44,508 nucleotides of DNA from Actinotalea sp. C106 (GTDB taxonomy: Bacteria; Actinomycetota; Actinomycetes; Actinomycetales; Cellulomonadaceae). A program made the translations under genes and the position numbers. The first letter of the stretch is position 1. The number at the start of each line of letters is the position of its first letter. Location: NCBI RefSeq assembly GCF_023630195.1, contig NZ_JALPKN010000001.1:1-44508 (forward strand). The letters are read 5' to 3'. The notes beneath the pieces are model-generated. The model saw only the letters and a list, made by a program, of their open reading frames with translations. It searched no databases and had not been told where the DNA came from. Below, piece after piece: positions 9,711 through 40,394 of the stretch.

Positions 9711-9762
9711 GTGCTCCCTGTCGACGGACGCTGGGGCGTGCTGGCGCCCGGGCCAGCGAGTC

Positions 9763-9768
9763 ACCTTA
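9763..9768 (-). promoter_or_regulatory. Possible -10 box of the exporter operon
   Basis: TAAGGT on the minus strand lies 52 nt before the ATG at 9710. TACCTT at 9767-9772 overlaps it on the plus strand and could serve the SpoIID gene. No clear -35 boxes. Confidence 0.35.
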
Positions 9769-9899
9769 CCTTCGGCAGAGCCTAGACCCGCCGATCGGGT
9801 GAATCCGGCGGGCCTGCCCAGCTCCGGGGTCGTGCCTCTGAGTGACGCGCGGTGGCTCGTGGTCCAATGGCAAGGATGCCTAGGACCCGTGGAGCTGTC

Positions 9900-11840: not shown

Positions 11841-11878
11841 GTGGGGTGCTCGTCGGGTCGTCCCGACGAGCACCCCAC
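11841..11878. terminator. Strong bidirectional hairpin terminator
   Basis: A perfect 17-bp inverted repeat (arms 11841-11857 and 11862-11878, 4-nt loop TCGT) starts directly after the SpoIID stop codon and sits 22 nt from the stop of the convergent GT4 gene. There is no T-run, as is usual for GC-rich actinobacterial terminators. Confidence 0.85.
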
Positions 11879-11900
11879 CCGGCGGCTTTGCCGATGGGTC

Positions 11901-15891: not shown

Positions 15892-15897
15892 CCGGAG

Positions 15898-15903
15898 ATC
15901 ATA
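15898..15903 (-). promoter_or_regulatory. -10 box of the FkbM operon, leaderless type
   Basis: TATGAT on the minus strand, one base from the consensus, ends 6 nt before the GTG at 15891. This is the best -10 in the window and implies a leaderless operon message. Confidence 0.6.
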
Positions 15904-15948
15904 GGCGTCCTCGTGCTCGACACGCCCTTGCGGCCGCCGTCGGCGGGC

Positions 15949-15977
15949 CTGACCGCACCGCCGGCGGACGGTAGGCT
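15949..15977 (+). promoter_or_regulatory. Promoter of the gmd operon
   Basis: CTGACC at 15949-15954, a 17-nt spacer and TAGGCT at 15972-15977 make a plausible sigma-70-type promoter. It leaves a leader of about 30 nt before the ATG at 16014. Confidence 0.55.
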
Positions 15978-16013
15978 CGCCCCGTTCTCTACTTCTCCGG
16001 CACTCGAGGGACC

Positions 16014-16997: not shown

Positions 16998-17000
16998 CCG

Positions 17001-26438: not shown

Positions 26439-28496
26439 ATGCGGGACGAGACCCACCAGACGGCGAGACGCCCGGCAGCGCTTCGAGGGGTGCTCGCCGG
26501 AGTGCTGACGGCGGTCGTCGGGGTGTCCACCGGGATCACGGCGCACGCGGCCGACGGCGGCCAGAGCGTCGTGACCGTCGACGGTACTGCGTGGACGGTA
26601 TTCGTCGACGCGCCCCACCCCCACCGGGAGGGACCCGAGCCCGACCACGCAGATCACGCAGATCACGCCAGCGACTCGCAGACCGTCGTCGTGCTCGAGG
26701 TGGACGACCAGCTGTACGAGCTCGCGGCTGGCTCCCCCTTGGAGGAGCTGCCCTCGGGGAGCGAGGTCACGCTGACCCTCGAGCTCGACCCGGGCGAGGA
26801 CGAGCTCGACGCGCTGGAGGCCTTGGGTGACGGGAGCAGCGCCGAGGCGAGCCCTCTCGTGGACGTGGTCGTGGCCGGTGGCCCCGCGTCGGGGCCCGGA
26901 ACCGACCAGGACGTCGCGACGGCCGAGGTGACGGGGTCCAGGACCCTGACCGTGCTGCCGGTCCACTTCGGGACGCCGGACCCTGCCGCGACCCAGGCCA
27001 AGCTCGGCGAGCTCGCGTCCAGCACGGCAACCTACTGGCGGGCGCAGTCCGGCGGGCAGCTGAGCCTCCAGACCTCGGTGCGCGGCTGGCAGGACATCGG
27101 ACCGGTGCAGGGCTGCGACTACCTGACCATCATGAGCAAGGCCCGCGCCGCCCACGGAGTCTCAGCCGAGCCGCGCCATCACGTGGTGGTGTACTTCCCC
27201 GAGCGAACCAGTTGCGGCTGGGCCGGTCTGGGCTCTGTGGGGGGCTCCCTCATGTGGGTGAACGGGTTGCTCTCCGCCGACGTCTTCGCGCACGAGTTCG
27301 GGCACAACCTCGGCCTGGGGCACGCCAACACCGCTACGTGCACCAGCGGCGGCCGCCGGGTCCCGCTGGTCCGGGCGAGCTCCTTCTCCTCGGCCTGCGT
27401 GGTGCGCGAGTACGCCGACCTCGCCGACGTGATGGGCGCGGCGTTCGTCAACCGTCCGACCGGCAACCTCAGCACGGGCTTGGCCGACCACCTCGGCTAT
27501 GCGCAGGTCAGGCGCGTCAGCGCCACCTCGGGCGTTCCTGTCACCGTCGACCTGGCTCCGCTCGCCAGCACGTCTGCGCTCCGCGCGCTCTCGATCGACG
27601 TCCCCGCAGGGCGGCTGTACGTGAGCTTTCGCCCTGCCGCGGGTCGAGACGTCCGCGTGCCGGAGTGGGCCGGGGTGCAGGTACACCTGCGCAGACCCGA
27701 CCGGATCGGCGCCCCCGAGACGGTCCTCCTCGACATGCAGCCCACGAGCTCCTTCGCGTTCTCGTCGGCGAACCTTCCGCAGGGCGGGACGTGGACGATC
27801 CCGGACACCGACCTGGCGCTCACGGTCGCCAGGACGGGCACCGTCGCACGGGTGACCGTGGGGCCGGCCGTCGGGGATCCTGCGATCGAGCGCTACGTCA
27901 CCACGGTCTATCTCGATCTCTTCGGTCGCGGCCCTGACGCGCGCGGCCTCGCCACCTGGACCTCCGCCCTGCAGTCGGGTGCCCCTCGCGCGGGCGTGGC
28001 CAACTCGATCACGGGATCGAACGAGTACCGCGGTCGACTCATCCGCGAGTCCTACCGCCAGTTCCTGGGCCGGGAGGCGGATCCGCACGGGCTCGCCTCC
28101 TGGCTCCGCGCGATGCGGCGCGGGGGGACGATCCAGCAGATGGAGGCGGGGTTCCTCGCCTCGAACGAGTACTACGTGAAGGCCGGAGGGTCCTCTGCGG
28201 GGTGGATCCGAGAGCTCTACGGCGACGTCTTGGGCCGGACACCCACCACGAGCGAGGTCCGCAGCTGGCAGGCGCGCCTGGGGTCGGGGTCGAGCCGCCG
28301 GTCCGTCGCGATGGGATTCCTGCTGTCCACCGAGTACCTGTCGACCGTGGTCGAGGGGCACTACCAGCACCTTCTCGGGCGGGGCCTCGACACCACGGGG
28401 CGACGCACCTGGGTGAGCAAGATCCAACGGGGAACTCGCACCGAGGCCGTCATCGCGGGGATCGTCGCCAGCAACGAGTACTACCGCAAGGCGTGA
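26439..28496 (+). CDS. Secreted metzincin metallopeptidase (M11-like) with C-terminal DUF4214 repeats
   Basis: Probable secreted zinc protease of 685 residues. A signal peptide (about 15-37, ending THA|ADG) is followed by a prodomain-like stretch with a DHADHADHA repeat, then a catalytic domain with HEFGHNLGLGH: His285, Glu286, His289 and His295 as zinc ligands and catalytic base, and a Met-turn candidate Met332 in ADVMGAAF. Together these define a metzincin; the spacing resembles gametolysin (M11). From about 478 on there are four DUF4214 units (DLFGRGPDARGL...W...SNEY), more diverged than those in the amidase and SpoIID proteins. The ATG follows GGAGG by 10 nt. Substrate unknown; a surface protein is likely. 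Confidence 0.9.
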   Translation: MRDETHQTARRPAALRGVLAGVLTAVVGVSTGITAHAADGGQSVVTVDGTAWTVFVDAPHPHREGPEPDHADHADHASDSQTVVVLEVDDQLYELAAGSPLEELPSGSEVTLTLELDPGEDELDALEALGDGSSAEASPLVDVVVAGGPASGPGTDQDVATAEVTGSRTLTVLPVHFGTPDPAATQAKLGELASSTATYWRAQSGGQLSLQTSVRGWQDIGPVQGCDYLTIMSKARAAHGVSAEPRHHVVVYFPERTSCGWAGLGSVGGSLMWVNGLLSADVFAHEFGHNLGLGHANTATCTSGGRRVPLVRASSFSSACVVREYADLADVMGAAFVNRPTGNLSTGLADHLGYAQVRRVSATSGVPVTVDLAPLASTSALRALSIDVPAGRLYVSFRPAAGRDVRVPEWAGVQVHLRRPDRIGAPETVLLDMQPTSSFAFSSANLPQGGTWTIPDTDLALTVARTGTVARVTVGPAVGDPAIERYVTTVYLDLFGRGPDARGLATWTSALQSGAPRAGVANSITGSNEYRGRLIRESYRQFLGREADPHGLASWLRAMRRGGTIQQMEAGFLASNEYYVKAGGSSAGWIRELYGDVLGRTPTTSEVRSWQARLGSGSSRRSVAMGFLLSTEYLSTVVEGHYQHLLGRGLDTTGRRTWVSKIQRGTRTEAVIAGIVASNEYYRKA
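26646..26669 (+). repeat. Short 9-bp tandem repeat inside the metallopeptidase gene
   Basis: CACGCAGAT occurs twice in a row (26646-26663) with a partial third copy, encoding DHADHADHA. Being a multiple of three, length changes would keep the frame. Confidence 0.7.
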
Positions 28497-28611: not shown

Positions 28612-29700
28612 GTGATCAAGAAGCTCAAGCGCATCGCCAAGGACCTCCTGGCGATCCCCGCCGTCCGCAAGACGTACGAGACCGCCAACCGCGGGGTCCT
28701 GGCCGTCGGGGGATCGACCCGCCTCGGCGCGACCCTCTACTCGATCCCCGGCTTCGGGACCTTCAACCGCGAGCAGTTCGCCGTCCTGTCGGGTCGACGC
28801 GCCTACTACGAGAACCTGCGGCGGTCACGGATCACGCACGTCGAGCTGCGCCGCAACGTGCACCGCCTCGAGAAGGGCATCCTCATGCGGCCGCGCCGTG
28901 ACGCGTTCGCCAAGGACTACATCCTCGAGACGGTGGAGTTCTACCGGACCGCCGTCCGCCGAGGCCCGCAGGACCCGGTCATGGACGCGAGCGAGATCCA
29001 GTGGGCCCACGACGTGCTGGCCGAGTACTTCGACGTCATCACGGTCCCGGACCCGGTCGTCGACCGGGCCCGAGCGGTGTTCACGTCCCTCGAGCACTCG
29101 CCGACCGACGGCACCATCAAGCCCTACGAGCACGGTGACATCAAGCGCAGCGACGTCACCTACGAGCAGCTGCTCACCCTGGCTCACCAGCGCCGCTCGG
29201 TGCGCTGGTTCCTGGACAAGCCCGTCGAGCGCGACCTGATCGACAAGGCGCTCCTGGTCGGACGCCAGTCCCCGACGGCGTGCAACCGCCTCCCCTACGA
29301 GTACCTCGTCTTCGACGACCCCGAGATGGTCAAGACCGTCGGCAGCATCCCGTTCGGGGCGGCCGGCTACTCCCACCAGATCCCCACCCTCATCGTCGTC
29401 AAGGGGCGGCTGGACAGCTACTTCTCGCCCCGGGACCGGCACGTCATCTACATCGACGCCGCTTTGGCGTCGATGGGCTTCATGTACGCCCTGGAGACCC
29501 TGGGCCTGAGCTCGAGCGTGATCAACTGGCCGGACTTCGAGCCCCTCGAGGCCAAGATGGCCAAGACCCTCAAGCTCGCTCCCCACGAGCGGGTGATCAT
29601 GCTCATCGCCGTCGGGTACGCCGACCCGACCGGCCTCGTCGCGTTCTCGCAGAAGAAGGACCTCGACGTCCTGCGCTCCTTCAACGCCCTTGAGTCGTAA
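28612..29700 (+). CDS. Nitroreductase-family protein in a polysaccharide operon
   Basis: FMN-dependent oxidoreductase fold, substrate unknown. The 362-residue protein is longer than usual nitroreductases (about 200): residues 1-185 form an extra N-terminal part with RRNVHRLEKGILMRPRRDAF, and the nitroreductase domain begins near HQRRSVRWFLDKPVERDLI, followed by RQSPTACNRLPYEYLVF and DAALASMGFMYALETLGL. GTG 28612 is chosen because GAGGA lies 6 nt upstream; GTG 28582 lacks such a site. It heads an operon with a flippase-like protein, a pyruvyltransferase-family protein and a GT4. The association suggests a redox step in sugar modification, which is inference. Confidence 0.88.
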   Translation: MIKKLKRIAKDLLAIPAVRKTYETANRGVLAVGGSTRLGATLYSIPGFGTFNREQFAVLSGRRAYYENLRRSRITHVELRRNVHRLEKGILMRPRRDAFAKDYILETVEFYRTAVRRGPQDPVMDASEIQWAHDVLAEYFDVITVPDPVVDRARAVFTSLEHSPTDGTIKPYEHGDIKRSDVTYEQLLTLAHQRRSVRWFLDKPVERDLIDKALLVGRQSPTACNRLPYEYLVFDDPEMVKTVGSIPFGAAGYSHQIPTLIVVKGRLDSYFSPRDRHVIYIDAALASMGFMYALETLGLSSSVINWPDFEPLEAKMAKTLKLAPHERVIMLIAVGYADPTGLVAFSQKKDLDVLRSFNALES

Positions 29701-30637
29701 GCGCCTGCTCCGCCTCGGCGCCACGATCCTGGTGCTGGGGCTGGTCGGGTACTTCTTCGGTCGCGCCCTAGCGGACAACTGGGACGCCGTCCGCGAGATC
29801 GAGGTCGAGGTCAACGGCTACTCGGTCGCCGCGGTGCTGCTCTTCGGCGCTGCCGTCGTGGTGTCTGGCCTGCTCTGGGGCTCGATGCTCTCCGGCCTCG
29901 GCAAGGTCAAGGTCACGACCGCGGACGCGATCAGGGTCCAGTGCGCGTCATGGTTGCTCAAGTACGTGCCGGGGCAGGTCGGCTCGGTGGCGAACAAGGT
30001 GCTCTGGGCCAAGCAGCGCGGCATCTCGCGCACCTTGGTGGTCATCTCCTTCGTCTACGAGAACGTCTTCCTGCTGCTGGGGTCGATCGTCCCCACGGCC
30101 GTGATCCTGCTCCTCCACGACTCCCTCGCAGCGACCGGAGACGCGCTCGGCACCTTCGTGCCGGTGCTCGTCGCCCTGGTGCCGCTGCTCCTGCTGACCG
30201 ACCGGCGTATCTTCCGTCGCGCCGTGAACCTGGTCGCTCGGCGGGCCCTCAAGCGGGACGTCCCCGAGGAGTACTTCCTCGGCTGGCGTGCTACGACCGG
30301 CTACCAGCTGCTCTTCCTCGTCCCGCGGATCATCAACGGTCTGGGTTTCGTCCTCATCGTCGCGTCGTTCCTGGACGTCGAGCCGTCGGCGTACGTGCCG
30401 CTCGCGGCGATCTACGTGCTCGCAGGTGCCGTTGGTATCCTCGCCGTCTTCGTCCCGAGCGGCCTCGGCGTGCGAGAGTCGGTCATCGTGCTCCTCGCGT
30501 CGCGCTACATGCCCGTCGAGCAAGCCATCGTGCTCTCGTTGCTCGCCCGTCTCTACAGCACGATCGGGGACGTCGTCGTCGCCGTCGTGTATGGCGCCCT
30601 CAAGGTCCGTGAAGCCAAGGAAGGACGTTCGTCATGA
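29690..30637 (+). CDS. Flippase-like membrane protein (LPG synthase TM / UPF0104 family)
   Basis: A 315-residue polytopic protein with about eight membrane helices. It carries the family block WLLKYVPGQVGSVANK and, near the end, VFVPSGLGVRESVIVLL. The family shares its fold with the membrane part of lysyl-phosphatidylglycerol synthase (which flips lipids); relatives in archaeal glycosylation loci act with polyprenyl-phosphate sugars. Start TTG 29690 overlaps the nitroreductase end by 11 nt and gives full family length; GTG 29729 is possible. The next gene overlaps by 4 nt. Flipping a lipid-linked sugar is a plausible role, not shown by the sequence. Confidence 0.85.
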   Translation: MSRKRLLRLGATILVLGLVGYFFGRALADNWDAVREIEVEVNGYSVAAVLLFGAAVVVSGLLWGSMLSGLGKVKVTTADAIRVQCASWLLKYVPGQVGSVANKVLWAKQRGISRTLVVISFVYENVFLLLGSIVPTAVILLLHDSLAATGDALGTFVPVLVALVPLLLLTDRRIFRRAVNLVARRALKRDVPEEYFLGWRATTGYQLLFLVPRIINGLGFVLIVASFLDVEPSAYVPLAAIYVLAGAVGILAVFVPSGLGVRESVIVLLASRYMPVEQAIVLSLLARLYSTIGDVVVAVVYGALKVREAKEGRSS

Positions 30638-31854
30638 AGGTCGCAGTCATCGGTTCGGCTCTCTCCGGCAACAAGGGGGCTGCGGCCATGCTCGAGAGCG
30701 GGGTGCAGCAGCTCTCGGCGCGCGATCCGGAGGCACGCTTCGTCCTGCTGAGCATGTACCCGCGGTCCGACGCGGCGCAGAACGCGTACCCGACGATGAA
30801 GGTCCTCGACGCCTCGCCCCTGCGGCTGGGAGTCCTCATCAACGGTGCCGCCCTCCTGCACCGCCTCCTCCCGCCCCTCCGCTCGGCCATCGAGGGCGCC
30901 GTCCCCGAGGTGCGCGCCCTCGCGACCGCCGACGTGATGCTCGACCAGGGCGGCATCACCTTCGTCGACGGACGCGGCAAGTTCCTCATCTACAACGTCG
31001 CCAGCATCCTGCCCGCGCTCTTCGTCGGGACCCCGGTCGTGAAGTGCGCGCAGGCGATGGGCCCGTTCCGCACCCCGCTCAACAAGCTGGCGGCGAAGGC
31101 GCTGCTGCCGCGCATGGCCGCGATCGTCTCGCGGGGCGCGGTGACCCACGAGCACCTCATGGGCCTAGGGCTCGACAACGTGACCGCCGGGGCGGACCTG
31201 GCGTTCACCCTCGACGTGACCGAGCACGACGCCGAGCTCGCGCGCCAGGCCGTCGACATGACCTTCTTCGACGACGGCGACGTCGTCGGGGTCTCGCCGA
31301 GCGCCGTGCTGCGCAAGTCGGCCGAGGCCGCTGGTGAGGACTACGTCGCCGAGGTCCAGCGCATGGTGGACCACCTGACGGGCACCCTGGGCAAGAAGGT
31401 GCTGCTCGTCGCGCACAGCGCACGTGCCCACACCGACAAGACGCACAACAACGACCTCCCCCTGTGCCGTGAGGTCTACGCGGGCCTCGCCCACCCGGAG
31501 CGCGTCCTGTTCCCCGACGAGGAGCTCAGCTCGCAGGCCCTGCGCTACCTCATCGGCCGTTGCGACGCCTTCGTCGCCTCGCGCTTCCACGCGATGGTCT
31601 CGTCCCTCGCCATGGGCGTCCCGACGCTCGTCATCGGGTGGAGCCACAAGTACCGCGAGGTGCTCGACATGTTCGGCCTCGCCGAGTGGGCCCTGGGCCA
31701 CGACGCCTACTCCGACGAGGTCTTCGCGGAGCGGGTAGGCGACCTGCTGGACCGCCAGAGCGAGGTCCGTGAGGCGCTGGAGAGCTCGCTGCCGAAGGTC
31801 AAGGCCAAGGCCCTCGAGCAGGTCAGCGTGATCGAGCGCGTCGCCCGCGGATGA
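30634..31854 (+). CDS. Polysaccharide pyruvyltransferase-family protein
   Basis: Members add a pyruvate ketal from phosphoenolpyruvate to sugars of surface polysaccharides, giving acidic groups; some instead act as glycosyltransferase-like enzymes. The 406-residue protein begins KVAVIGSALSGNKGAAAML, has LDQGGITFVDG, QAMGPF and VASRFHAMVSSLAMGVPTL, the typical block around the conserved RFH. ATG 30634 overlaps the previous stop (ATGA) with AAGGA 8 nt upstream. In an operon with a nitroreductase, a flippase-like protein and a GT4. Confidence 0.93.
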   Translation: MKVAVIGSALSGNKGAAAMLESGVQQLSARDPEARFVLLSMYPRSDAAQNAYPTMKVLDASPLRLGVLINGAALLHRLLPPLRSAIEGAVPEVRALATADVMLDQGGITFVDGRGKFLIYNVASILPALFVGTPVVKCAQAMGPFRTPLNKLAAKALLPRMAAIVSRGAVTHEHLMGLGLDNVTAGADLAFTLDVTEHDAELARQAVDMTFFDDGDVVGVSPSAVLRKSAEAAGEDYVAEVQRMVDHLTGTLGKKVLLVAHSARAHTDKTHNNDLPLCREVYAGLAHPERVLFPDEELSSQALRYLIGRCDAFVASRFHAMVSSLAMGVPTLVIGWSHKYREVLDMFGLAEWALGHDAYSDEVFAERVGDLLDRQSEVREALESSLPKVKAKALEQVSVIERVARG

Positions 31855-32978
31855 CCCCGCGGGTCCTGGTCGACGCGACGGCGATCCCGGCGGACCGAGG
31901 GGGCGTCGGGCGCTACGTCGATGAGCTGCTGCCTGCCCTCGGCCGGGCCGGGGCGGACCTCGTCGTGGTGTGCCAGGAGCGGGACGCCGAGCAGACCTCG
32001 GCGCTCGTGCCCTCAGCCGAGGTCGTCACGGCTCCGGTCGCCATCGCCCGCCGCCCGGCACGGCTGGCCTGGGAGCAGGTCGGCCTGCCGCAGGTCGTGC
32101 GGAGGACGAGGGCCGACGTGCTGCACAGCCCGCACTACACGATGCCCGCACGAGCCGGCGTGCCGGTGGTGACGACGCTGCACGACGCGACCTTCTTCAG
32201 CCACCCGACGCTGCACGGGGGCCTCAAGGCACGCTTCTTCCGACGGGCCATCCGCGGTGCGGTGCGACGGTCGGCATCCCTCGTCGTGCCGTCAGAAGCC
32301 ACGAGGGACGAGGTGCTCCGCTATGCCGGTGGTACCGCGGCTCGTTTCCACGTGGCCTATCACGGCGTCGACAGGTCGGTGTTCCATCCCGTCAGCGTCC
32401 AGGAGCGGGAGCGGGTGACCACGACGCTGGGGCTCGCACAAGGAGAGGCGTACGTCGGCTTCCTCGGAACCCTCGAGCCGCGCAAGAACGTGCCTGCCCT
32501 CGTGCGCGGATGGGTGCAGGCGGTCGGCGACGTCCCGAGCCCGCCCGCCCTCGTGCTCGCCGGGGGAGCGGGGTGGGACGAGGACATCGAGCCCGCGATC
32601 GCGGCTGTCCCCCCCCACCTTCGCGTGATCCGGACGGGCTACCTTCCGCTGACGGACCTCGCAGGCTTCCTCGCGGCGTCGACCGTCCTGGCCTACCCGA
32701 GCCACGGTGAGGGCTTCGGGCTCCCGGTGCTCGAGGCGATGGCCTGCGGCGCGGCCGTGCTGACCACCCGAGAGCTGTCTCTCCCGGAGGTCGGCGGGGA
32801 CGCGGTTGCGTACTGCGGCACCACCGAGCACGAGATCGGTGCCGCACTTCGTGACCTGCTGCAGGACGAGGAGAGACGGCGGACGCTCGGAGATGCAGCG
32901 GCACGGCGAGCTGCGCTCTTCACCTGGGACACCGCCGCGGAGGTACACCTCCGCGCCTACGCGGCCGCCGCGGGCTGA
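31851..32978 (+). CDS. GT4-family glycosyltransferase
   Basis: Retaining GT-B enzyme of 375 residues, mannosyltransferase-like. Motifs: RGGVGRYVDELLPAL, TTLHDATFFSHP, FLGTLEPRKNVPALVRGW and EGFGLPVLEAMACGAA (E-x7-E). ATG 31851 overlaps the previous stop (ATGA). Last gene of the nitroreductase operon; its stop codon directly abuts the stop of the convergent DUF2142 gene with no spacer. Confidence 0.94.
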   Translation: MTPRVLVDATAIPADRGGVGRYVDELLPALGRAGADLVVVCQERDAEQTSALVPSAEVVTAPVAIARRPARLAWEQVGLPQVVRRTRADVLHSPHYTMPARAGVPVVTTLHDATFFSHPTLHGGLKARFFRRAIRGAVRRSASLVVPSEATRDEVLRYAGGTAARFHVAYHGVDRSVFHPVSVQERERVTTTLGLAQGEAYVGFLGTLEPRKNVPALVRGWVQAVGDVPSPPALVLAGGAGWDEDIEPAIAAVPPHLRVIRTGYLPLTDLAGFLAASTVLAYPSHGEGFGLPVLEAMACGAAVLTTRELSLPEVGGDAVAYCGTTEHEIGAALRDLLQDEERRRTLGDAAARRAALFTWDTAAEVHLRAYAAAAG

Positions 32979-32992: not shown

Positions 32993-34667
32993 CTGGCGAA
33001 CCGCCCGATCCCGCACCGGCTGGCGCGTCGGCGTCGGTGGCTGGTGCGCTCGACCTGGCACCCCACCACCCGGCGACGATCAGCAGCACGACGCCGAGGG
33101 GGAGGACCGCGAAGCACGCCAGGGTCACTGCGGGTGGTGTTGCGGACCACGCTCCCAGCGACTCCAGGCGCCCCATGAGGGTCTCACCGGCCCAGTGGTG
33201 CTCGAGGGCCTTCACGAACGAGAGGCCCGTGAATGCGAGTCCTCCTCCCACGATGACCAGCGCGGCCACCTGCCTGAGCTTGCCCCGGAGCGTGCCCATC
33301 AGGCCGAGACCGAAGGCGCCGGCGACGGCGGCGATGCCGGTGAAGAGGTACCTGCCCTGGAGCCCGCGCGCGAAGCCGGTGTCGAGGAAGAGCGACCACG
33401 TCGAGTACATGAGCACAGCGATCAGGGCGACGAAGGGCAGCGCCAGGAGCAGCCCGTCGGCCCGACGCGCGGAGTAGGACTGCCGGCGCACCACGAGGAC
33501 GAGCAGTCCCACGAGGAGGACGACGGTCAGCGCCCAGGTGACCGCGTAGGGGAAGGGCGCTTCTTCGTGCTTGATCGACAGCATCGCCCAGAAGCGCGTC
33601 GGCACGTACTCGGCGACAGCGCTGACGAACCGGGGGAGCGCGGCCGCGGGGTCGAGCGGCACGTCACGGCTCGGCAGGTGCCCAGCAGGCTGCACGGCGC
33701 CGAAGACGAGGTAGTTGCGTACCCACCACCAGGCGCCCAGGAGGGAGAGGGCGCCTGTGGTCACCAGCCCACCTAGGGCTCTGCCCCAACGGCGGGTGCG
33801 AGCCGCACCGAGCAGGTACCCGAGGCAGATCACCGGGATGAACAGGAGCGCCCAGGCCTTGGCGAGCAGCCCGACGGCCAGCACGAGCCCGAGCAGCACG
33901 GCCGTTCTGCGACGTTGGTCGCCCGTACCCACCCGGGTGATGAGGTAGGACATCGCGACACCCGTGAGGATCGCGAGGTTCTCGTTGTTGACCGCGCCGC
34001 CCAGTGCGCCCAGCTGGGGGACGAGCAGCGGGGTGGCAGCGCCGACGGCGATGCCAGCGCGATCGGCCCCCAGCCTGTGCACCGTCAACGCCATGAGCCA
34101 CGGGAGCGGGGTGATCAGCAGCACGTTGACCAGGCGGAGCAGCCACACGTGGAGGTCGAACGCGGTGCTCTCGGGCGTCAGGTGGCTCGCCGCCGCGGTC
34201 AAGGCGTAGTAGCCAGGTGGGTGCTGACCCAGGTTGTTCGTGCCGGAGGTCGTGACCTCACCGTCGACGACGAAGGGCGGGCGCGTCGCTCGGGGGACCA
34301 CGTCCTCCCGCGCCAGGGGGTAGTACTGGCCGTCGGCGTCGGTGTGGCCCGCGATGGAGCGGGTCTTGGAGACGTTGGTGACGATCGGCAGCTGCTTGTA
34401 GCCCGGCCAGTCCATCCCGTAGCGCAAGGACAGGGTGGCGCTCACCTGGGCCGGTTCGTCGGCGGACCGGTAGGTTGGCAGGACGAAGGTCCAGGTGAGC
34501 AGGACGCCGAGCCAGACGATGGTGATCGCTGCGACCAGGGCTCGCGGGAAGGGGCCGGTACGCGCGGTCCGCAGGTCGCGCGAGGGTCGCGGGGCTCGAT
34601 GCCTCGCCTCACCCGGGTGGGGCTCCGCTCCAGGCTGGTCGGTGGGCTGGGTCGCAGGACGTGTCAC
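32979..34667 (-). CDS. DUF2142-family membrane protein, probable GT-C glycosyltransferase
   Basis: A 562-residue protein with a cytoplasmic tail of about 42 residues and about 12 membrane helices. After the first helix comes the acidic pair Asp70-Glu71 (RSADEPAQVS), the expected position of the GT-C catalytic acid, then a loop with LGQHPPGYYALTAA, and late GLQGRYLF. DUF2142 proteins are widespread in actinobacterial polysaccharide loci and are thought to be polyprenyl-phosphate-sugar-dependent transferases acting outside the membrane; no activity can be read here. GTG 34667 overlaps the rmlC stop (GTGA), so it is co-transcribed with rmlC. Confidence 0.9.
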   Translation of the reverse strand: MTRPATQPTDQPGAEPHPGEARHRAPRPSRDLRTARTGPFPRALVAAITIVWLGVLLTWTFVLPTYRSADEPAQVSATLSLRYGMDWPGYKQLPIVTNVSKTRSIAGHTDADGQYYPLAREDVVPRATRPPFVVDGEVTTSGTNNLGQHPPGYYALTAAASHLTPESTAFDLHVWLLRLVNVLLITPLPWLMALTVHRLGADRAGIAVGAATPLLVPQLGALGGAVNNENLAILTGVAMSYLITRVGTGDQRRRTAVLLGLVLAVGLLAKAWALLFIPVICLGYLLGAARTRRWGRALGGLVTTGALSLLGAWWWVRNYLVFGAVQPAGHLPSRDVPLDPAAALPRFVSAVAEYVPTRFWAMLSIKHEEAPFPYAVTWALTVVLLVGLLVLVVRRQSYSARRADGLLLALPFVALIAVLMYSTWSLFLDTGFARGLQGRYLFTGIAAVAGAFGLGLMGTLRGKLRQVAALVIVGGGLAFTGLSFVKALEHHWAGETLMGRLESLGAWSATPPAVTLACFAVLPLGVVLLIVAGWWGARSSAPATDADAPAGAGSGGSPARDE

Positions 34668-35281
34668 GACGTCAGAGCCTCCAGGTACCCGCTGACGTCG
34701 GCCAGGGTGGGGAGCAGGCCGCTGCGCTCGGCCTCCCGCAGGCTGGGTGCGGCTCGGTCCTTCTCCGAGAGCTGAGGCGTCAGCGCGGACCCGTCACGTC
34801 CGACCGTGGGCCAGGTGATGCCCACCTCAGGGTCAAGGGGGTGCAGCCCGTGCTCACGGCCCGGGGAGTAGCCGGTCGAGCAGAGGTAGAGGACGGTGGA
34901 GTCGTCCTCCAAGGAGAGGAACGCGTGCCCCAGGCCCTCGCCGATGTAGATCGCGCGTCGGTCCACGTCGTCGAGCAGGACCGAGTCCCACTGCCCGAAG
35001 GTCGGCGAGCCGACGCGGATGTCGACGACGACGTCCAGGATCGCGCCCTTCGCGCAGGTGACGTACTTGGCCTGCCCGGGGGGCACGTCGGCGAAGTGGA
35101 TGCCGCGCAGGACGCCTGCCGCGGAGACCGAGCAGTTGGCCTGCTGGAGGTCGAAGGTGTGCCCGGTGGCCTCGAGGAACGGTCCGCCCTGGAAGTACTC
35201 GAGGAACACGCCCCGCGGGTCACCGTGGTGCCGAGGGGAGATCTCCCAGGCGCCGGGGACGCTCAGCTCGCGGTAGGTCAT
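34664..35281 (-). CDS. rmlC: dTDP-4-dehydrorhamnose 3,5-epimerase
   Basis: Third step of dTDP-L-rhamnose synthesis. The 205-residue cupin protein has RGIHF with catalytic His62, Lys72 (GQAKYV) and Tyr132 (VLYLCSTGYSPGREHG), matching the family. ATG 35281 is supported by GAGGA 6 nt upstream and family length. It starts 79 bp from the divergent rmlD gene, with back-to-back -10 boxes, so the two rhamnose genes are probably coordinated. The DUF2142 gene follows with a 4-nt overlap. Confidence 0.97.
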   Translation of the reverse strand: MTYRELSVPGAWEISPRHHGDPRGVFLEYFQGGPFLEATGHTFDLQQANCSVSAAGVLRGIHFADVPPGQAKYVTCAKGAILDVVVDIRVGSPTFGQWDSVLLDDVDRRAIYIGEGLGHAFLSLEDDSTVLYLCSTGYSPGREHGLHPLDPEVGITWPTVGRDGSALTPQLSEKDRAAPSLREAERSGLLPTLADVSGYLEALTS

Positions 35282-35309
35282 GTCCGTCCTCTCGTGTGGG
35301 TGCCCAGAG

Positions 35310-35315
35310 ATCGTA
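35310..35315 (-). promoter_or_regulatory. -10 box of rmlC
   Basis: TACGAT on the minus strand, 28 nt before the rmlC ATG, 10 bp from the rmlD -10 on the other strand. Confidence 0.5.
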
Positions 35316-35325
35316 CCGGCGCGAC

Positions 35326-35331
35326 TAGGTT
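35326..35331 (+). promoter_or_regulatory. -10 box of rmlD
   Basis: TAGGTT lies 29 nt before the GTG at 35361. Its -35 zone overlaps the rmlC promoter. Confidence 0.45.
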
Positions 35332-35360
35332 GTCCCCGTGACTGGACGACGGGAGACGAT

Positions 35361-36215
35361 GTGCGCTGGCTGGTGACCGGGGCGGGCGGAATGCTCGGCC
35401 AGGAGATGACCTCGCTGCTGCTCGAACGAGACGAGGCCTGCCGCGCGGTCGCTCGGGACGAGCTCGACGTGACCGACTCGGCGGCCACGGAGAAGGCCGT
35501 CGCGGGGTTCGACGTGGTGGTCAACTGCGCTGCGTACACCGCTGTCGACGCGGCTGAGGCCGATGAGGCCACCGCCTTCGGCGTCAACGCGGTCGGGGCG
35601 GCCAACCTGGCCCGCGCGGCAAGGCTCGCCGGTGCCCGGATCGTGCAGGTGTCGACGGACTACGTCTTCGACGGTGCCGCCACGCGGGCCTATCCCGAGG
35701 ACGCGTCCCTGGCGCCGGCGAGCGCCTACGGACGGACCAAGGCCGCAGGGGAGTGGGCCGTGCGGGCCGAGAACCCTGACCACCTCGTCGTGCGTACCGC
35801 GTGGCTCTACGGCGAGGCTGGCCCGTGCTTCCCGCGGACGATCGCCCGCGTGGCGCACCAGCGCGGTGCCCTCGACGTCGTCGACGACCAGTGGGGGCAG
35901 CCGACCTGGACCCGGGACCTGGCAGACCTGGTTCATCGCCTCGTCCGGGCCGACGCCCCCGCGGGCACGTACCACGGCAGCTCCTCCGGCCGGACGACCT
36001 GGCACGGGTTCGCTCGGGCGGTCGTCGCCGCAGCGGGCCTGGACCCCGCGATCGTCGCTCCGACGACGAGCGAGGCCTTCGTGCGCCCCGCCCCTCGGCC
36101 GGCGTTCTCGGTGCTGGGTCACGATGCCCTCGAACGGCACGGCGTCGTGCCGATCGGCGACTGGGCCGAGCGCTGGGCCGTGGCTGGTGCGGGGGTGCTG
36201 GCACCTGATCAGTGA
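35361..36215 (+). CDS. rmlD: dTDP-4-dehydrorhamnose reductase
   Basis: Last step of dTDP-L-rhamnose synthesis, NADPH-dependent. The 284-residue extended SDR has TGAGGMLGQEM at 6-16, NCAAYTAVDAAE, STDYVFDG at 98-105, and YGRTK with Tyr123 and Lys127. GTG 35361 follows GGGAGA by 7 nt and puts the Rossmann strand at the very N-terminus. Single gene, ended by a strong hairpin at 36218-36248. Confidence 0.97.
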   Translation: MRWLVTGAGGMLGQEMTSLLLERDEACRAVARDELDVTDSAATEKAVAGFDVVVNCAAYTAVDAAEADEATAFGVNAVGAANLARAARLAGARIVQVSTDYVFDGAATRAYPEDASLAPASAYGRTKAAGEWAVRAENPDHLVVRTAWLYGEAGPCFPRTIARVAHQRGALDVVDDQWGQPTWTRDLADLVHRLVRADAPAGTYHGSSSGRTTWHGFARAVVAAAGLDPAIVAPTTSEAFVRPAPRPAFSVLGHDALERHGVVPIGDWAERWAVAGAGVLAPDQ

Positions 36216-36217
36216 CC

Positions 36218-36248
36218 CGCCCGGGGCCCGCGCATCAGGCCCCGGGCG
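36218..36248. terminator. Bidirectional hairpin terminator between rmlD and the flippase-like gene
   Basis: Perfect 11-bp stem (CGCCCGGGGCC with GGCCCCGGGCG) and a 9-nt loop. It begins 2 nt after the rmlD stop; the stop codon of the convergent gene lies in the loop and stem edge. Confidence 0.7.
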
Positions 36249-37212
36249 AGGTCTGGGTCAGCGAGGACGCGCCGCGCCGTCGAGCGGCTAGCACCGCTGC
36301 TCCAGCACCGGTGCAGTCCGCCAGGAGCATGAGGAAGCGGCTCACGAGTGCGAGAACCAGGGCGTCATCTCTGTTCAGTGCGGTTGCGAGGACCAGGACC
36401 AGCGCGGCCTCTCGAGCGCCTGCACCTGCAGGCAGCACGACGATGACGAAGCCGACGACCCATGCCAGGGCGTACCCGCCGGTGGTGAGCAGCAGGAGGC
36501 CCTCGGTAGGGGCGCCCAGGGAGCGGGCGAGCAGCCACAGGTGCAGCCCGAAGGCAACCCACATGGCCGCGGTCCACACGCAGGCCTCGAGCATCGCGCG
36601 CGCGGTGATCGGTTCGATGCTGCCGCCGCGACGCACAAGGGTCAGGGCGGCCGGGAACCACCGGTTGAAGACCGCGGGGACCAGAGGGAGGAGCCCCGCC
36701 GCCGCGAGCAGCGTGAGCCACCAGTAGGCCCGCAGCGCCTCGGGAGAGGAGAAGGCGAGGGTGACCATCGCCACGGCCACGCCCATGACGACCAGGACCA
36801 CCCACCGGACCATGCCGGCAAGGACGGCGCGGGTGCGGCGCACGCCGTAGTCCCGCGAGAGCATGGACTGCGCGACCACGGGCCAGACCCCGCCGGGGAC
36901 GTACTTGCCCAGCTCGCCGAGCAGGAAGACGCGAGAGGCTGCCGGCACGGACAGCGGCGACCCCAGCCCCCGGAGCGCAGAACGCCAGGTCATCATGGTG
37001 CACGCGAGCCCGACGAGGACCAGGGCGAAGGCGGCACCGACAGCCCCCAGGTCGAGCTGCCCCAGACCCGCGGTGATGTCGTCCCACTCGTCGATCAGGT
37101 ACACCGTGGCGAACCCGGCGACGATGACGAGCGCCAGGGGGCGCAGGTAGCGACGTAGTCCTCTCCTGTGACGCGGGTGGGTGGCGGCCAGCGGCGCCGC
37201 TGAGGAACTCAC
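36235..37212 (-). CDS. Flippase-like membrane protein (LPG synthase TM / UPF0104 family)
   Basis: A 325-residue polytopic protein of the same broad family as the one at 29690. It has about eight helices, the block LGELGKYVPGGVWPVVAQS and the late VVLPAGAGAREAALVLV. The KYVPGG(V)W form marks a different subgroup from the 29690 protein. GTG 37212 begins one base after the stop of the DUF2142 gene at 37214, so the two are co-transcribed. This pairing of a GT-C candidate with a flippase-like protein fits outer-face sugar transfer, by inference. Confidence 0.87.
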   Translation of the reverse strand: MSSSAAPLAATHPRHRRGLRRYLRPLALVIVAGFATVYLIDEWDDITAGLGQLDLGAVGAAFALVLVGLACTMMTWRSALRGLGSPLSVPAASRVFLLGELGKYVPGGVWPVVAQSMLSRDYGVRRTRAVLAGMVRWVVLVVMGVAVAMVTLAFSSPEALRAYWWLTLLAAAGLLPLVPAVFNRWFPAALTLVRRGGSIEPITARAMLEACVWTAAMWVAFGLHLWLLARSLGAPTEGLLLLTTGGYALAWVVGFVIVVLPAGAGAREAALVLVLATALNRDDALVLALVSRFLMLLADCTGAGAAVLAARRRGASSLTQTSPGA

Positions 37213-37213
37213 C

Positions 37214-38794
37214 TCACGAGGGTAGTCGCCGGGCCGCAGGCGCCTGCTCGACGGTCGGGCCGCTCGGCGCGTCACGCCGTGCGCGCCAGCCGCCGACGAG
37301 CAGGACCACGACCGTGGTCACCCACAGCACCGCCGAGAGACCGAGGACCGTGCCGTTCGCCGGCGTAGAGGCCAGCCCCCACGCCCCCCACCGGGTCCAC
37401 GCCTCCTCGACCGTGCCCCCGGCAGGTCGGTACATGTGCTCAGCGGCCAGGACGAGGCTGAGCACGGCCACGGCCGCGGCGACCGCGGTGACGGCGGCGG
37501 GGAGCGCCGCGCGGACCGACGCCGAGGCGGCCACCAGATCGAGGGCGGCAGCCACCGCGATCCCCAGCACCACGAGGGCGCAGAAGAGGTAGCGACCCTG
37601 GAGCCCGGGGAACTGGCCCGAGTGGAAGTGCCGGATGCCACCCCCGACGAGCACGATGCCCAGGATCCCGGCGGGGAAGGCCGCGAGCGCCAGCATCGGA
37701 CCGACTCTGCGCCGGCGGACGGCCCACACCGCCGCGCCGAGCAGGGCGAGCAGGACGAGCGAATTCCCGGAGCGGACGAGCCACGCCGGGACCTCGAGCT
37801 CGAGCCAGCCGAAGGATCCCCAGAAGGTCTGCGAGAGCCGCACCGAGGCCTGGTAGAGGAACACGCGCAGCGTCTGCTGGCCGTCCCCCGCTGGCAGGGG
37901 CGGGTCGCCCGCGGGCTGGACCTCCCCGTAGAGGAGCAGGTTGCGCAACCACCACCAGCCCCCGACGACGAATGCCGTCGCGAGGGCGATCAGAGCGTTG
38001 CCCGTCCGGCGGCGCCAGCCCAGCCCGTGCGCGGGGAGCAGCAGGGCCAGGGCCACCATGGGGATCGCGGCGAGCATGAACCCTTTGGTCAGCAGCCCCA
38101 GGCCCAGGGCGGCGCCGAGCCCGAGCAGCGCACGGCCGCCCGGGGGGGTGGTCATGGTCCGGACGACGAGGTAGACGACCAGGCTCCCGGAGAGGGTGGT
38201 CAGGGCGTCGTTCGAGGCGCCTCCGGCGATGTGCGCCACCTGCGGTATGCCCAGGGGGATGACGGAGGCCGCGAGGGCGACGGGTCGCGAGCCGACCAGC
38301 CTCTCGACGCTGAGCCCGATGAGGGGCACGGTCCCGACGGTGAGCACGACGCTGAGCAGCCGGAGGGCCAGGAGCTGGCCGTCCCAGGCCCAGTCGTGGG
38401 CGCCGAGCACCGTCAGGAGACCGGCGCCGAGCGCGTAGTACGCCGGCGGGTGCTGACTCATCTGGTCATAGCTCTGCGTGATCGGTGCCGGGAACGGTGC
38501 CGTCATCGCGGTGACCACCGAGCGGCTGGGAGCGTCCCGCGGGGCGCGTACCGCCAGCGCGTCCAGGCCGACGTCGAAGCCGGCCTCCTGCGTCGCGAGC
38601 ACCGTCCCCTCGGTGAGGTAAGCAGCCCCCGGTGCGGGCCATCCACCGCCGTTCATGAGCCGCAGCACGCTGTTGTAGTGCTGGGGCTCGTCCGGGGCCT
38701 TGAAAGGCGGGGTGAGCACCGACCAGCACGTGGCCAGGAGCCCGAAGCACACCGTCAGCAGGACCAGCGAGGTCCGGAAGGTGCGGCGAGGCAT
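37214..38794 (-). CDS. DUF2142-family membrane protein, probable GT-C glycosyltransferase
   Basis: A 526-residue protein with about 12 membrane helices, starting directly with a helix. The first outer loop has KAPDEPQHY with Asp35, Glu36 and His39; then SQHPPAYYALGAG, WWWLRNLLLYGEVQPAG and GLQGRYLFCAL, the same order as in the 32979 protein. ATG 38794 has a -10 box (TACCCT) 6 nt upstream, so it is probably leaderless. The frame continues upstream but is antisense to the next gene. Probable polyprenyl-phosphate-sugar-dependent transferase. Confidence 0.9.
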   Translation of the reverse strand: MPRRTFRTSLVLLTVCFGLLATCWSVLTPPFKAPDEPQHYNSVLRLMNGGGWPAPGAAYLTEGTVLATQEAGFDVGLDALAVRAPRDAPSRSVVTAMTAPFPAPITQSYDQMSQHPPAYYALGAGLLTVLGAHDWAWDGQLLALRLLSVVLTVGTVPLIGLSVERLVGSRPVALAASVIPLGIPQVAHIAGGASNDALTTLSGSLVVYLVVRTMTTPPGGRALLGLGAALGLGLLTKGFMLAAIPMVALALLLPAHGLGWRRRTGNALIALATAFVVGGWWWLRNLLLYGEVQPAGDPPLPAGDGQQTLRVFLYQASVRLSQTFWGSFGWLELEVPAWLVRSGNSLVLLALLGAAVWAVRRRRVGPMLALAAFPAGILGIVLVGGGIRHFHSGQFPGLQGRYLFCALVVLGIAVAAALDLVAASASVRAALPAAVTAVAAAVAVLSLVLAAEHMYRPAGGTVEEAWTRWGAWGLASTPANGTVLGLSAVLWVTTVVVLLVGGWRARRDAPSGPTVEQAPAARRLPS

Positions 38795-38800
38795 CCGGTG

Positions 38801-38806
38801 AGGGTA
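38801..38806 (-). promoter_or_regulatory. -10 box of the DUF2142 gene at 38794, leaderless type
   Basis: TACCCT on the minus strand ends 6 nt before the ATG at 38794. Confidence 0.45.
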
Positions 38807-38818
38807 GCGGTCGGCCGC

Positions 38819-38824
38819 TAGGTT
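38819..38824 (+). promoter_or_regulatory. -10 box of the membrane protein gene at 38831, leaderless type
   Basis: TAGGTT ends 6 nt before the ATG at 38831. The sequence CTAGGTTG recurs at the rmlD promoter. Confidence 0.45.
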
Positions 38825-38830
38825 GACCCG

Positions 38831-39523
38831 ATGCTCGCCGACGACGTAGCCCGCCCCGCCCGGCCTCGTGCTCTGCTCCGGGCCGCGCCCTACCTGGCTG
38901 TGCTGGTCCTCTCGGCGGGACTGATCGGCGCGACCCTCGCCATCGGCGCGCGGCTCGACCTCACGACCTCGCAGCTCATGCGCGACCCCGCCACGTCCTT
39001 CATGGCCTCGCCCTTCATCGGGTTCCTGTCTCAGATCGGGATCTTCATCTGGTCCGGGACCGCCTCGATCGCCCTCTTCGCCGCTGCGGCCGGGGTAGGC
39101 GCGGCGACGCGTCGCCTCCGGGCCATGCTCGCGGCCACGGGCCTCCTCACGGCGGCGCTCGCCCTCGACGACCTCTTCCTCCTGCACGAGGCCGTGCTCC
39201 CGATGATCGGCGTGCCCGAGCTCGTGACCTACGGCGCCTACGGCGTGGCGGCGGTGGTCATCGCGCTGACGTTCTGGCGCGAGGCCCTGGCCTGCAGGCC
39301 CGGCCTGCTGCTCGTCGCGGGGCTGTTCCTCGGAGGGTCGGTCGCGCTGGACCTGCTCGACCCGTCCGGCATCGACCCGTACCTGTGGGAGGACGGCGCC
39401 AAGCTGGTCGGACTCGTCGCATGGTTCGTGCTGCACGTCGACGTGTCACGGCACGCGGTGCGGTGCGGTGCCGAGCCCTGCGGGTCCCGCTGCCCCACGG
39501 CGAGGCTCGCGGGCCGCCGCTGA
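38831..39523 (+). CDS. Uncharacterised polytopic membrane protein
   Basis: I do not recognise a named family. The 230-residue protein has about six helices: YLAVLVLSAGLIGATLAIG, a pair within FMASPFIGFLSQIGIFIWSG, LLTAALALDDLFLLHE, YGVAAVVIALTFW, LLVAGLFLGGSVALDLLD and LVGLVAWFVLHVDVSRH. Polar residues sit inside or at the edge of helices: DDLFLLHE, DLLD, EDGAK and HVDVSRH, a pattern of acids and histidines that could bind metal or substrate in the membrane. The tail has three cysteines (RCGAEPCGSRC). ATG 38831 is supported by the -10 box 6 nt upstream. It lies between a DUF2142 gene and rmlA, so a role in lipid-linked sugar chemistry is possible. Confidence 0.82.
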   Translation: MLADDVARPARPRALLRAAPYLAVLVLSAGLIGATLAIGARLDLTTSQLMRDPATSFMASPFIGFLSQIGIFIWSGTASIALFAAAAGVGAATRRLRAMLAATGLLTAALALDDLFLLHEAVLPMIGVPELVTYGAYGVAAVVIALTFWREALACRPGLLLVAGLFLGGSVALDLLDPSGIDPYLWEDGAKLVGLVAWFVLHVDVSRHAVRCGAEPCGSRCPTARLAGRR

Positions 39524-39524
39524 G

Positions 39525-40394
39525 TCAGCCCTCCTGCTCGAGGAGCTCGAGCAGGTAGGTGCCGTAGCCGGACTTGGTGAGCCCCTCGGCCCGGGCACGC
39601 AGCTCGTCGTTGCTGAGGAACCCGCGGCGCCAGGCCACCTCCTCGGGGGACCCGATCTTGAGCCCCTGGCGGTGCTCGACGGTACGCACGTAGTCGGAGG
39701 CCTCGAGCAGCGAGTCGAAGGTGCCGGTGTCCAGCCACGCCGTACCGCGGGGCAGGACCTCGACCTGGAGGCGGCCCTGCTCGAGGTAGGTGCGGTTGAC
39801 GTCGGTGATCTCGTACTCGCCGCGGGCCGAGGGCTTGAGCTCCCGGGCGATCGCCAGGACGTCGTTGTCGTAGAAGTACAGACCGGGCACCGCATAGTTG
39901 CTCTTGGGGTGGGCCGGCTTCTCCTCGAGGGACAGGGCCTTGCCCTGCGCGTCGAACTCGACCACGCCGTAGCTGGTGGGGTCGGCGACCCGGTAGGCGA
40001 AGACCGCGCCACCGTCGATGTCGCTGAACCGCGAGAGGCGGCTGCCCAGACCTGCGCCGTAGAAGATGTTGTCCCCCAGGACGAGGGCTGCGGAGTCCGC
40101 CCCGACGAAGTCCGCCCCCAGGACGAAGGCCTGCGCCAGCCCGTTGGGCTCGGCCTGCACCGCGTAGGAGATCGAGATGCCGAACTGCGAGCCGTCGCCC
40201 AGCAGGCGGTGGAACTGGTCGGCGTCGTGCGGGGTGGTGATCACGAGCACGTCGCGGATGCCGGCGAGGATCAACGTCGAGAGCGGGTAGTAGATCATCG
40301 GCTTGTCGTAGACCGGGACCAGCTGCTTGCTGACGCCCTGGGTGATGGGGTGAAGCCTCGTGCCGGACCCGCCGGCCAGGATGATTCCTCGCAT
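39525..40394 (-). CDS. rmlA: Glucose-1-phosphate thymidylyltransferase
   Basis: First step of dTDP-L-rhamnose synthesis: dTTP plus glucose-1-phosphate to dTDP-glucose. The 289-residue protein has [11 protein letters not shown] near 8-18, [43 protein letters not shown] and [12 protein letters not shown], all family blocks, and the usual length of the short RmlA class. ATG 40394 is the family start. One base separates its stop from the stop of the convergent membrane protein gene. It is divergent from manA across 120 bp. Confidence 0.97.

What the first reader, a model, noticed from the sequence alone, without database searches (positions are those of the whole stretch)
28612..32978. Nitroreductase, flippase-like, pyruvyltransferase and GT4 genes form one overlapping operon
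All four genes overlap (11, 4 and 4 nt). A nitroreductase with a 185-residue extra N-terminus has no obvious role in polysaccharide synthesis; the tight link suggests an unknown flavin-dependent sugar or lipid modification that works with pyruvylation.
Basis: partly seen in the sequence, partly recalled or inferred. Interest (0 to 1): 0.6.

Follow-up and report, generated by a model that had tools for sequence, protein, structure and literature searches.

The report
Nitroreductase paired with pyruvyltransferase, probably lactyl-making
A flavin enzyme and a pyruvate-transferring enzyme travel together through many distantly related bacteria, and the best explanation is that they work in sequence to put lactic-acid groups on surface sugars.

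Summary
The four overlapping genes are real (28612-32978). The nitroreductase (NTR), a flippase-like protein and the pyruvyltransferase (PVT) form a conserved cassette; the GT4 gene is local. A PVT lies near full-length NTR homologues in 46 of 47 loci (the miss is a 3-kb contig), in 14 of 15 further loci from genome draws (one NTR shortened), and in 0 of 18 ordinary actinobacterial nitroreductase controls. Three NTR homologues are fused to a PVT. In 200 family genomes, window-type NTR and PVT occur in the same 8.

Proposed mechanism (inferred): PVT transfers enolpyruvate from PEP to a glycan hydroxyl; NTR reduces it with FMNH2 to a lactyl (1-carboxyethyl) ether. Support: FbiB's nitroreductase-fold domain does such a reduction in F420 synthesis; Klebsiella K22 has a lactyl ether, no pyruvate, yet a PVT gene; on E. 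coli plasmids NTR or an FrhB flavoprotein fills the slot between flippase and PVT in partly broken modules homologous to the O124/O164 O-antigen cluster, whose glycan carries a lactyl ether (recalled). Caveats: that swap is in a PVT clade distant from the window's; 4 of 14 opened plasmid loci and one genome locus have NTR without PVT; no biochemistry.

The parts
28612..29700 (+). Long nitroreductase (NTR): about 190-residue mostly helical N-terminal extension plus nitroreductase domain; proposed enolpyruvyl-glycan reductase
   Evidence: Pfam PF00881 67.8 bits at residues 193-336; 42-sequence alignment with invariant R53, E54, R81, H84, R85, E87, K88, R194, R195, S196, R198, A223, C224, N225, R226, R276, H277, N305, W306; AlphaFold mean pLDDT 86.8; the 50 PDB matches listed are nitroreductase-type proteins
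28861..28878 (+). HRLEKG signature (residues 84-89) in the N-terminal extension; H84, E87 and G89 invariant and K88 nearly so across 15 very diverse long NTRs
   Evidence: H65, E68, G70, K69 in the numbering of its first row
29188..29619 (+). Nitroreductase domain (residues 193-336): RRSxR (FMN site, recalled motif), TACNR and RDRH motifs
29690..30637 (+). Flippase-like membrane protein (LPG_synthase_TM, PF03706), proposed to translocate the modified lipid-linked glycan
   Evidence: 60.2 bits vs cut-off 33.4; a homologue by profile in 43 of 47 loci, in the order NTR-FLP-PVT on one strand in 36 of 47
30634..31854 (+). Pyruvyltransferase (PVT, PS_pyruv_trans), proposed PEP-dependent enolpyruvyl transferase acting on the glycan
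   Evidence: PF04230 110.1 bits vs 25.3; PEP-site residues of CsaB (R148, H308, R306, K328; PMC10435577 passages) correspond, by motif and spacing, to R167, H319, R317, K339, kept in 100, 100, 86 and 86% of 72 NTR-linked PVTs (its numbering minus 7)
31851..32978 (+). GT4 glycosyltransferase, overlapping here but not part of the conserved unit
34664..40394 (.). Surroundings: dTDP-rhamnose-type genes (34664-35605 -, 35280-36215 +, nucleotidyltransferase 39525-40394 -), a second PF03706 protein (36235-37275 -) and a DUF2142 membrane protein (37214-39436 -); shows that the unit lies in a surface-polysaccharide locus

Best explanation
The unit makes lactyl (1-carboxyethyl) ethers on a cell-surface glycan in two steps. 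The PVT transfers the enolpyruvyl group of PEP to a hydroxyl of a (probably lipid-linked) sugar; the NTR, with FMNH2 and with its N-terminal domain helping to hold the glycan, reduces the C=C bond to a lactyl ether; the flippase-like protein takes the product across the membrane. Shown here: the conserved pairing, fusions, co-occurrence, conserved PEP-site residues, a nitroreductase domain, and interchange of NTR with an FrhB-type flavoprotein in homologous E. coli modules. Inferred: the enolpyruvyl intermediate, the reduction, the lactyl product, the role of the N-terminal domain and the flippase role. The acceptor sugar is unknown.
For: (1) PVT near NTR in 46/47 named loci of Actinomycetota, Pseudomonadota, Bacteroidota and a few bins of unclear placement and in 14/15 other loci; 26 of the weaker or divergent PVTs (from these sets, plasmids and L166) checked in Pfam were all PF04230 above cut-off; 0/18 ordinary nitroreductases. 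(2) PVT-NTR fusions in Paracoccus and Gemmobacter plasmids and in genome G153. (3) Window-type NTR (over 500 bits) and PVT (over 600 bits) in exactly the same 8 of 200 family genomes (1.8e-14 if independent; they are adjacent, so this is co-transfer). Pairwise identities of NTR and PVT over 72 loci (two duplicates included) correlate, r=0.90. (4) Chemical precedent inside the nitroreductase fold: FbiB's C-terminal domain uses FMNH2 to reduce the PEP-derived enolpyruvyl group of dehydro-F420-0 to lactyl (PMC6450877, abstract and passages). (5) Klebsiella: K8, K22, K37, K66 have PVT genes but no pyruvate, and 2 nitroreductase genes occur in 79 cps loci (PMC4616057 passages); K22 contains 4-O-[(S)-1-carboxyethyl]-GlcA (title of its reference 36) and K22 and K37 have the same cps genes but for an acetyltransferase frameshift (PMC3857182 passages). 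(6) The O124/O164 O-antigen cluster, whose polymer carries a lactyl ether (recalled; O124/O164 and an FrhB-type alternative were written down before the cluster was seen), has wzx-FrhB-PVT-GT2-GT32; E. coli plasmids carry Wzx-NTR-PVT, Wzx-FrhB-PVT and PVT-GT2-GT32 pieces homologous to it (33-55% identity); on one plasmid the PVT beside FrhB is 99.7% identical over 337 residues to the PVT beside an NTR remnant.
Against: The PVT tree puts the window's PVT in a clade split by a long branch from the clade where FrhB and NTR interchange, and loosely with WcaK, annotated as colanic-acid pyruvyltransferase; transfer of the argument to the window rests on NTR homology (20% identity between window and E. 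coli plasmid NTR). The 99.7% identity of the two plasmid PVTs could come from a recent duplication or recombination in an insertion-element-rich plasmid. FbiB's substrate-site residue R337 has no Arg at the aligned column in the window or E. coli NTR, and the NTRs match FbiB no better than BluB or other nitroreductases. Four of 14 opened plasmid loci (Ruegeria, R. leguminosarum, R. etli, R. gallicum) and one genome locus (L141) have a long NTR and no PVT nearby. Rhizobium makes up over half of the plasmid matches (24 of 45 records), so PVT-free NTRs may not be rare there. That the two Klebsiella nitroreductases are those of K22 and K37 is inferred, and no glycan structure from a window-type locus is known to me. 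The O124/O164 structure is recalled.
Confidence: 0.55

Rival explanations
1. The PVT makes an ordinary pyruvate ketal and the NTR makes a second, independent change on the same repeat unit (for example reduction or desaturation of a sugar), the two being linked because both decorate one glycan.
For: The window PVT is loosely nearer WcaK than the O124 PVT in the tree; cell walls of Promicromonospora strains carry pyruvate ketals (PMC6801904 section 23); some NTRs occur without PVT.
Against: Does not readily explain the fusions, the scarcity of NTR without PVT in the genome loci (1 of 15 plus a 3-kb contig of 47), or the FrhB/NTR exchange beside nearly the same PVT.
Confidence: 0.2
2. The NTR acts on the pyruvylated product in another way, for example reductive opening of a ketal to a lactyl ether, or control of the stereochemistry of the ketal carbon.
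For: Same linkage evidence; the K22 glycan has a lactyl ether.
Against: No precedent known to me for flavin-dependent ketal opening; the enolpyruvyl route has precedents in MurA/MurB (recalled) and FbiB.
Confidence: 0.1
3. The NTR (and FrhB) serves a redox or maturation role for the PVT or for the cell envelope and does not touch the glycan.
For: Many nitroreductases are promiscuous (recalled); no assay of this subfamily is known to me.
Against: Conservation of CNR and a later Arg across the diverse set, and of RDRH and NWPD in the window clade, beyond the FMN site points to a defined substrate.
Confidence: 0.08
4. No functional link: the genes only travel together in exchangeable polysaccharide islands.
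For: The cassette is patchy (4 of 19 genomes of the genus) and found in distant taxa.
Against: NTR and PVT stay together in several orders and orientations while GT4 does not, and they fuse.
Confidence: 0.04

Closest known systems
FbiA/FbiB C-terminal domain (F420 synthesis)
   Same: PEP-derived enolpyruvyl group reduced to lactyl by an FMN-dependent nitroreductase-fold domain (PMC6450877)
   Different: Substrate is the precursor of cofactor F420, not a glycan; not a member (scores far below the TIGR03553 cut-off); no PF04230 transferase in that pathway (recalled)
MurA/MurB (UDP-MurNAc synthesis)
   Same: Enolpyruvyl transfer to a sugar hydroxyl, then flavin-dependent reduction to a lactyl ether (recalled; MurA step in PMC6801904)
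   Different: Unrelated protein families (recalled, not tested); acts on a nucleotide sugar
PS_pyruv_trans ketal pyruvyltransferases (CsaB, WcaK, Pvg1p)
   Same: Same family, corresponding PEP-site residues
   Different: CsaB and Pvg1p make cyclic ketals; no flavoenzyme partner is known to me; the window PVT is far below the CsaB and WcaK equivalog cut-offs
FrhB-PVT pairs in E. coli O124/O164, IAI1 and plasmid loci
   Same: Flavoprotein-type gene between a flippase gene and a PVT; plasmid and O124/O164 modules homologous
   Different: FrhB belongs to other families (PF04432/PF04422)

Membership tests
PS_pyruv_trans (PF04230) | Profile score above the gathering cut-off | tested here: met
   110.1 bits vs 25.3
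PS_pyruv_trans (PF04230) | PEP-binding R, R-x-H and K of CsaB/Pvg1p | tested here: met
   R167, R317/H319, K339 by motif and spacing (CsaB itself was not aligned); R and H in all, the others in 86% of 72 NTR-linked PVTs (residues named in PMC10435577)
Ketal pyruvyltransferase CsaB or WcaK | Equivalog score | tested here: not met
   79.4 vs 213.1 (TIGR03609) and 62.9 vs 727.1 (TIGR04006)
Ketal pyruvyltransferase | Formation of a cyclic pyruvate ketal | not testable with these tools
   needs biochemistry
Nitroreductase (PF00881) | Profile score and fold | tested here: met
   67.8 vs 23.5 bits; VIA-align Z 18.8, rmsd 2.3, 166 aligned with 3e10_A
Nitroreductase | FMN binding and reductase activity | not testable with these tools
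   only the conserved RRSxR motif (recalled as the FMN site)
FbiB C-terminal domain (TIGR03553) | Equivalog-domain score | tested here: not met
   8 of 15 diverse NTRs match at E 0.001 or better, best E 3.2e-6 (the one score shown is 19.7 bits; cut-off 249.55); the window NTR itself had no NCBIfam match
FbiB C-terminal domain | Carboxylate-binding R337 | tested here: not met
   at the aligned column the window NTR has F and the E. coli plasmid NTR G or Q, not Arg, in an alignment with indels; other invariant Arg exist (R226, R276)
LPG_synthase_TM (PF03706) | Profile score | tested here: met
   60.2 vs 33.4 bits; flippase function not tested
Lactyl-ether biosynthesis module (proposed) | PVT plus dedicated flavoenzyme in a locus whose glycan has a lactyl ether and no ketal | tested here: inconclusive
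   fits O124/O164 (gene content; glycan recalled) and K22/K37 (NTR placement inferred); no glycan known to me for the window clade

The most novel reading that the evidence does not exclude
A general, MurA/MurB-independent route to lactyl-ether sugars: members of the PS_pyruv_trans family act as enolpyruvyl transferases when coupled to a dedicated flavin reductase, and two unrelated flavoproteins (the long nitroreductase described here and FrhB-like proteins) fill that reductase slot interchangeably in capsules, O-antigens and actinobacterial wall glycans. Many genes now annotated 'polysaccharide pyruvyl transferase' would then make lactyl ethers and not pyruvate ketals.
Probability: 0.5. Interest if true: 0.75.

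Novelty: new variant of a known kind. Interest (0 to 1): 0.62.

Why it matters
If true it assigns a function to a nitroreductase subfamily with a conserved N-terminal domain, lets one predict from sequence whether a 'pyruvyltransferase' locus yields a ketal or a lactyl ether (which matters for capsule and O-antigen typing), and makes the origin of lactyl-ether sugars in capsules, O-antigens and cell-wall glycans directly testable with a two-enzyme assay.

Tried and rejected
Membership of FbiB: rejected on score and on R337. GT4 as a core part: rejected. DUF4214 proteins (three in the window) as possible binders of the modified glycan: no DUF4214 hit in any other locus then held in the ORF set, dropped. 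A counterpart for the N-terminal domain: predicted alone (mean pLDDT 75.7, 33 sequences), no Foldseek PDB match with E at or below 0.001; inconclusive at that model quality. E. coli chromosomal NTR genes: none by DNA similarity with three NTR queries, which would miss diverged genes. The main texts of two further Klebsiella genomics papers and K-PAM have no 'nitroreductase'. In print: nine paper searches combining terms such as nitroreductase, pyruvyltransferase or pyruvyl transferase, carboxyethyl, lactic or lactyl listed no paper that, from titles, abstract starts and the passages I opened, links an NTR or a PVT to lactyl ethers; the FrhB link was not searched for. Dropped rows: of 20 chosen control loci two (L166 with a long NTR, a PVT 3.2 kb away and an FrhB gene; L167 with a partial long NTR and no PVT) proved not to be ordinary nitroreductases and were left out of the 0/18; L143 and L149 duplicate L048 and L026 and were left out of the 14/15, in which L140 has a shortened NTR. 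Domain-only hits were not opened, apart from those fetched as controls. Of 45 plasmid records, 14 were opened. The phylum draw used the window-clade profile and may have missed distant long NTRs.
Full report
Observation. Pfam gives a nitroreductase domain at residues 193-336, an LPG_synthase_TM protein, a PS_pyruv_trans protein and a GT4 protein. The window is a large surface-polysaccharide locus with a LytR-CpsA-Psr protein, an ABC-2 transporter domain, nucleotide-sugar genes and several glycosyltransferases. The genome held is 3.6 Mb in 661 contigs; the nearest named NTR relatives are in Actinotalea species (90 and 88%).

Conservation. A scan of GTDB species genomes with the NTR found 47 loci with (near) full-length homologues (45-90% identity for the 41 that were aligned), in Actinomycetota, Pseudomonadota (Luteimonas, Qipengyuania, Roseivivax, Wenzhouxiangella and others) and Bacteroidota (Dyadobacter, Salinivirgaceae). 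With profiles for NTR, PVT and the flippase-like protein, 46 of 47 have a PVT in the locus; the miss (L058) is a 3,031-base contig. 43 of 47 have a flippase-like homologue and 36 of 47 keep the order NTR-flippase-PVT on one strand; others are divergent or lack it, so the NTR-PVT pair is the core. In broad draws with a diverse profile, full-length homologues were found in 5 of 368 other genomes of the class of Wenzhouxiangella, in 2 of 294 others of the class of Dyadobacter plus one shortened, and in 2 of 288 others of the class of Qipengyuania; with the window-clade profile in 1 of 395 other genomes of the phylum (which may miss distant ones); the genus has a long NTR in 4 of 19 genomes, the window's included. 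Together with family members, 17 regions were opened, 15 of them not duplicates of the first set, and 14 of 15 have a PVT, fused or within about 1.6 kb; L141 has none. Ordinary nitroreductases of Actinomycetota give 0 of 18 within about 8 kb. Divergent PVTs from both sets were confirmed as PF04230. Of 45 plasmid records matched 14 were opened: 10 have a PVT (L067-L070, L072-L075, L181 2.6 kb away, L182) and 4 do not (L066, L071, L076, L183). Three proteins fuse PVT and NTR: Paracoccus, Gemmobacter and genome G153.

Co-occurrence. In the draw of 200 genomes of the family (the listed handles coincide in both calls), NTR matches over 500 bits and PVT matches over 600 bits occur in the same eight genomes. 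Pairwise identities of NTR and PVT correlate (r = 0.90 over 2,556 pairs, two duplicate loci included). Both are expected from a cassette that is inherited or transferred as a unit.

Proteins. Across 15 very diverse long NTRs the N-terminal H-x-x-E-K-G motif (K nearly invariant), arginines of the FMN motif, P-x-x-CNR and a later Arg are kept, so the extended protein looks like one family with a defined substrate; the Pfam and NCBIfam scans of these 15 hit nitroreductase-type models only. The AlphaFold model is a helical N-terminal region plus a nitroreductase domain. The PVT keeps residues corresponding to the PEP site probed by mutagenesis in CsaB (passages), and a PVT profile finds Pvg1p in the PDB (E 1.8e-7).

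Mechanism. A PEP-using transferase coupled to a flavin-type enzyme suggests enolpyruvyl transfer followed by reduction. The precedent lies within the nitroreductase fold: FbiB's C-terminal domain reduces the enolpyruvyl group of dehydro-F420-0 to the lactyl group of F420-0 with FMNH2 (PMC6450877, abstract and passages). On glycans the product would be a 1-carboxyethyl (lactyl) ether. Klebsiella supplies one test: K8, K22, K37 and K66 have a PVT gene and no pyruvate, and two nitroreductase genes and one F420-hydrogenase-type gene exist in 79 cps loci (PMC4616057, passages); K22 contains 4-O-[(S)-1-carboxyethyl]-glucuronic acid (reference title in PMC3857182), and K22 and K37 have the same cps genes apart from one frameshift. 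That the two nitroreductases are in K22 and K37 is inference.

E. coli supplies the second. Before seeing any cluster I noted O58, O124 and O164 as lactyl-ether antigens and FrhB as a possible alternative reductase (from memory; read back). A PVT search then hit a galF-gnd cluster whose wzx and wzy are annotated as O124/O164 family: wzx, FrhB-type flavoprotein, PVT, GT2, GT32. E. coli plasmids carry homologous modules (Wzx 33-36%, FrhB 45%, PVT 43%, GT2 41-42%, GT32 55% identity to O124/O164) in which the slot between the flippase gene and the PVT holds an FrhB or an NTR; on one plasmid the PVT next to FrhB and the PVT next to an NTR remnant are 99.7% identical over 337 residues. These plasmid modules are broken by insertion elements, no single plasmid shows the whole module, and the near-identity could be a recent duplication. 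Even so, nearly the same transferase stands beside either flavoenzyme, and the FrhB version stands in a lactyl-ether cluster (glycan recalled). A further FrhB-PVT pair is in the galF-gnd cluster of E. coli IAI1, product unknown to me.

Limits. The FrhB/NTR exchange lies in a PVT clade separated by a long branch from the window's clade, which holds WcaK loosely (many long branches, so placements are unsure). The NTRs of the two clades align over most of their length but are only about 20% identical. FbiB's own substrate residue is not kept. Rhizobial and Ruegeria NTRs without PVT show that the family has other uses or distant partners. No experiment was done.

Verdict. The GT4 gene is incidental. 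I found no report linking these enzymes to lactyl ethers in nine searches of an open-access library, which misses most subscription papers.

Noticed in passing
window 2761-4947 +, 9852-11840 +, 26439-28496 +: Three proteins (amidase, SpoIID-like and metallopeptidase-like) share C-terminal DUF4214 repeats; none found in the other loci examined. Possibly a wall-glycan-binding domain, in analogy to SLH domains.
   Followed up: partly
window 36235-37275 -: A second PF03706 (LPG_synthase_TM) protein in the same polysaccharide locus.
   Followed up: no
L066 (Ruegeria sp. B32 plasmid) 1-17059: Inverted duplication carrying two copies of a long NTR with an ATP-grasp protein and a HAD hydrolase but no PVT within 8 kb.
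   Followed up: no
L071, L076, L183 (Rhizobium plasmids): Long NTRs without PVT and not in polysaccharide clusters, near ABC-transporter, amidohydrolase, racemase or DNA-polymerase genes: a possible second function of the family.
   Followed up: partly
L166 (G034) 7958-13486: Long NTR, FrhB-type flavoprotein and PVT together in one locus in the window's own family.
   Followed up: partly
L185 (E. coli IAI1 galF-gnd): Flippase-FrhB-PVT-EpsG module; product structure not known to me, a candidate for checking lactyl ether against ketal.
   Followed up: no
L180 8148-9283 (E. coli TUM18780): The O124/O164 PVT is annotated as two pieces in this strain while strain WEC (L186) has it as one CDS.
   Followed up: partly
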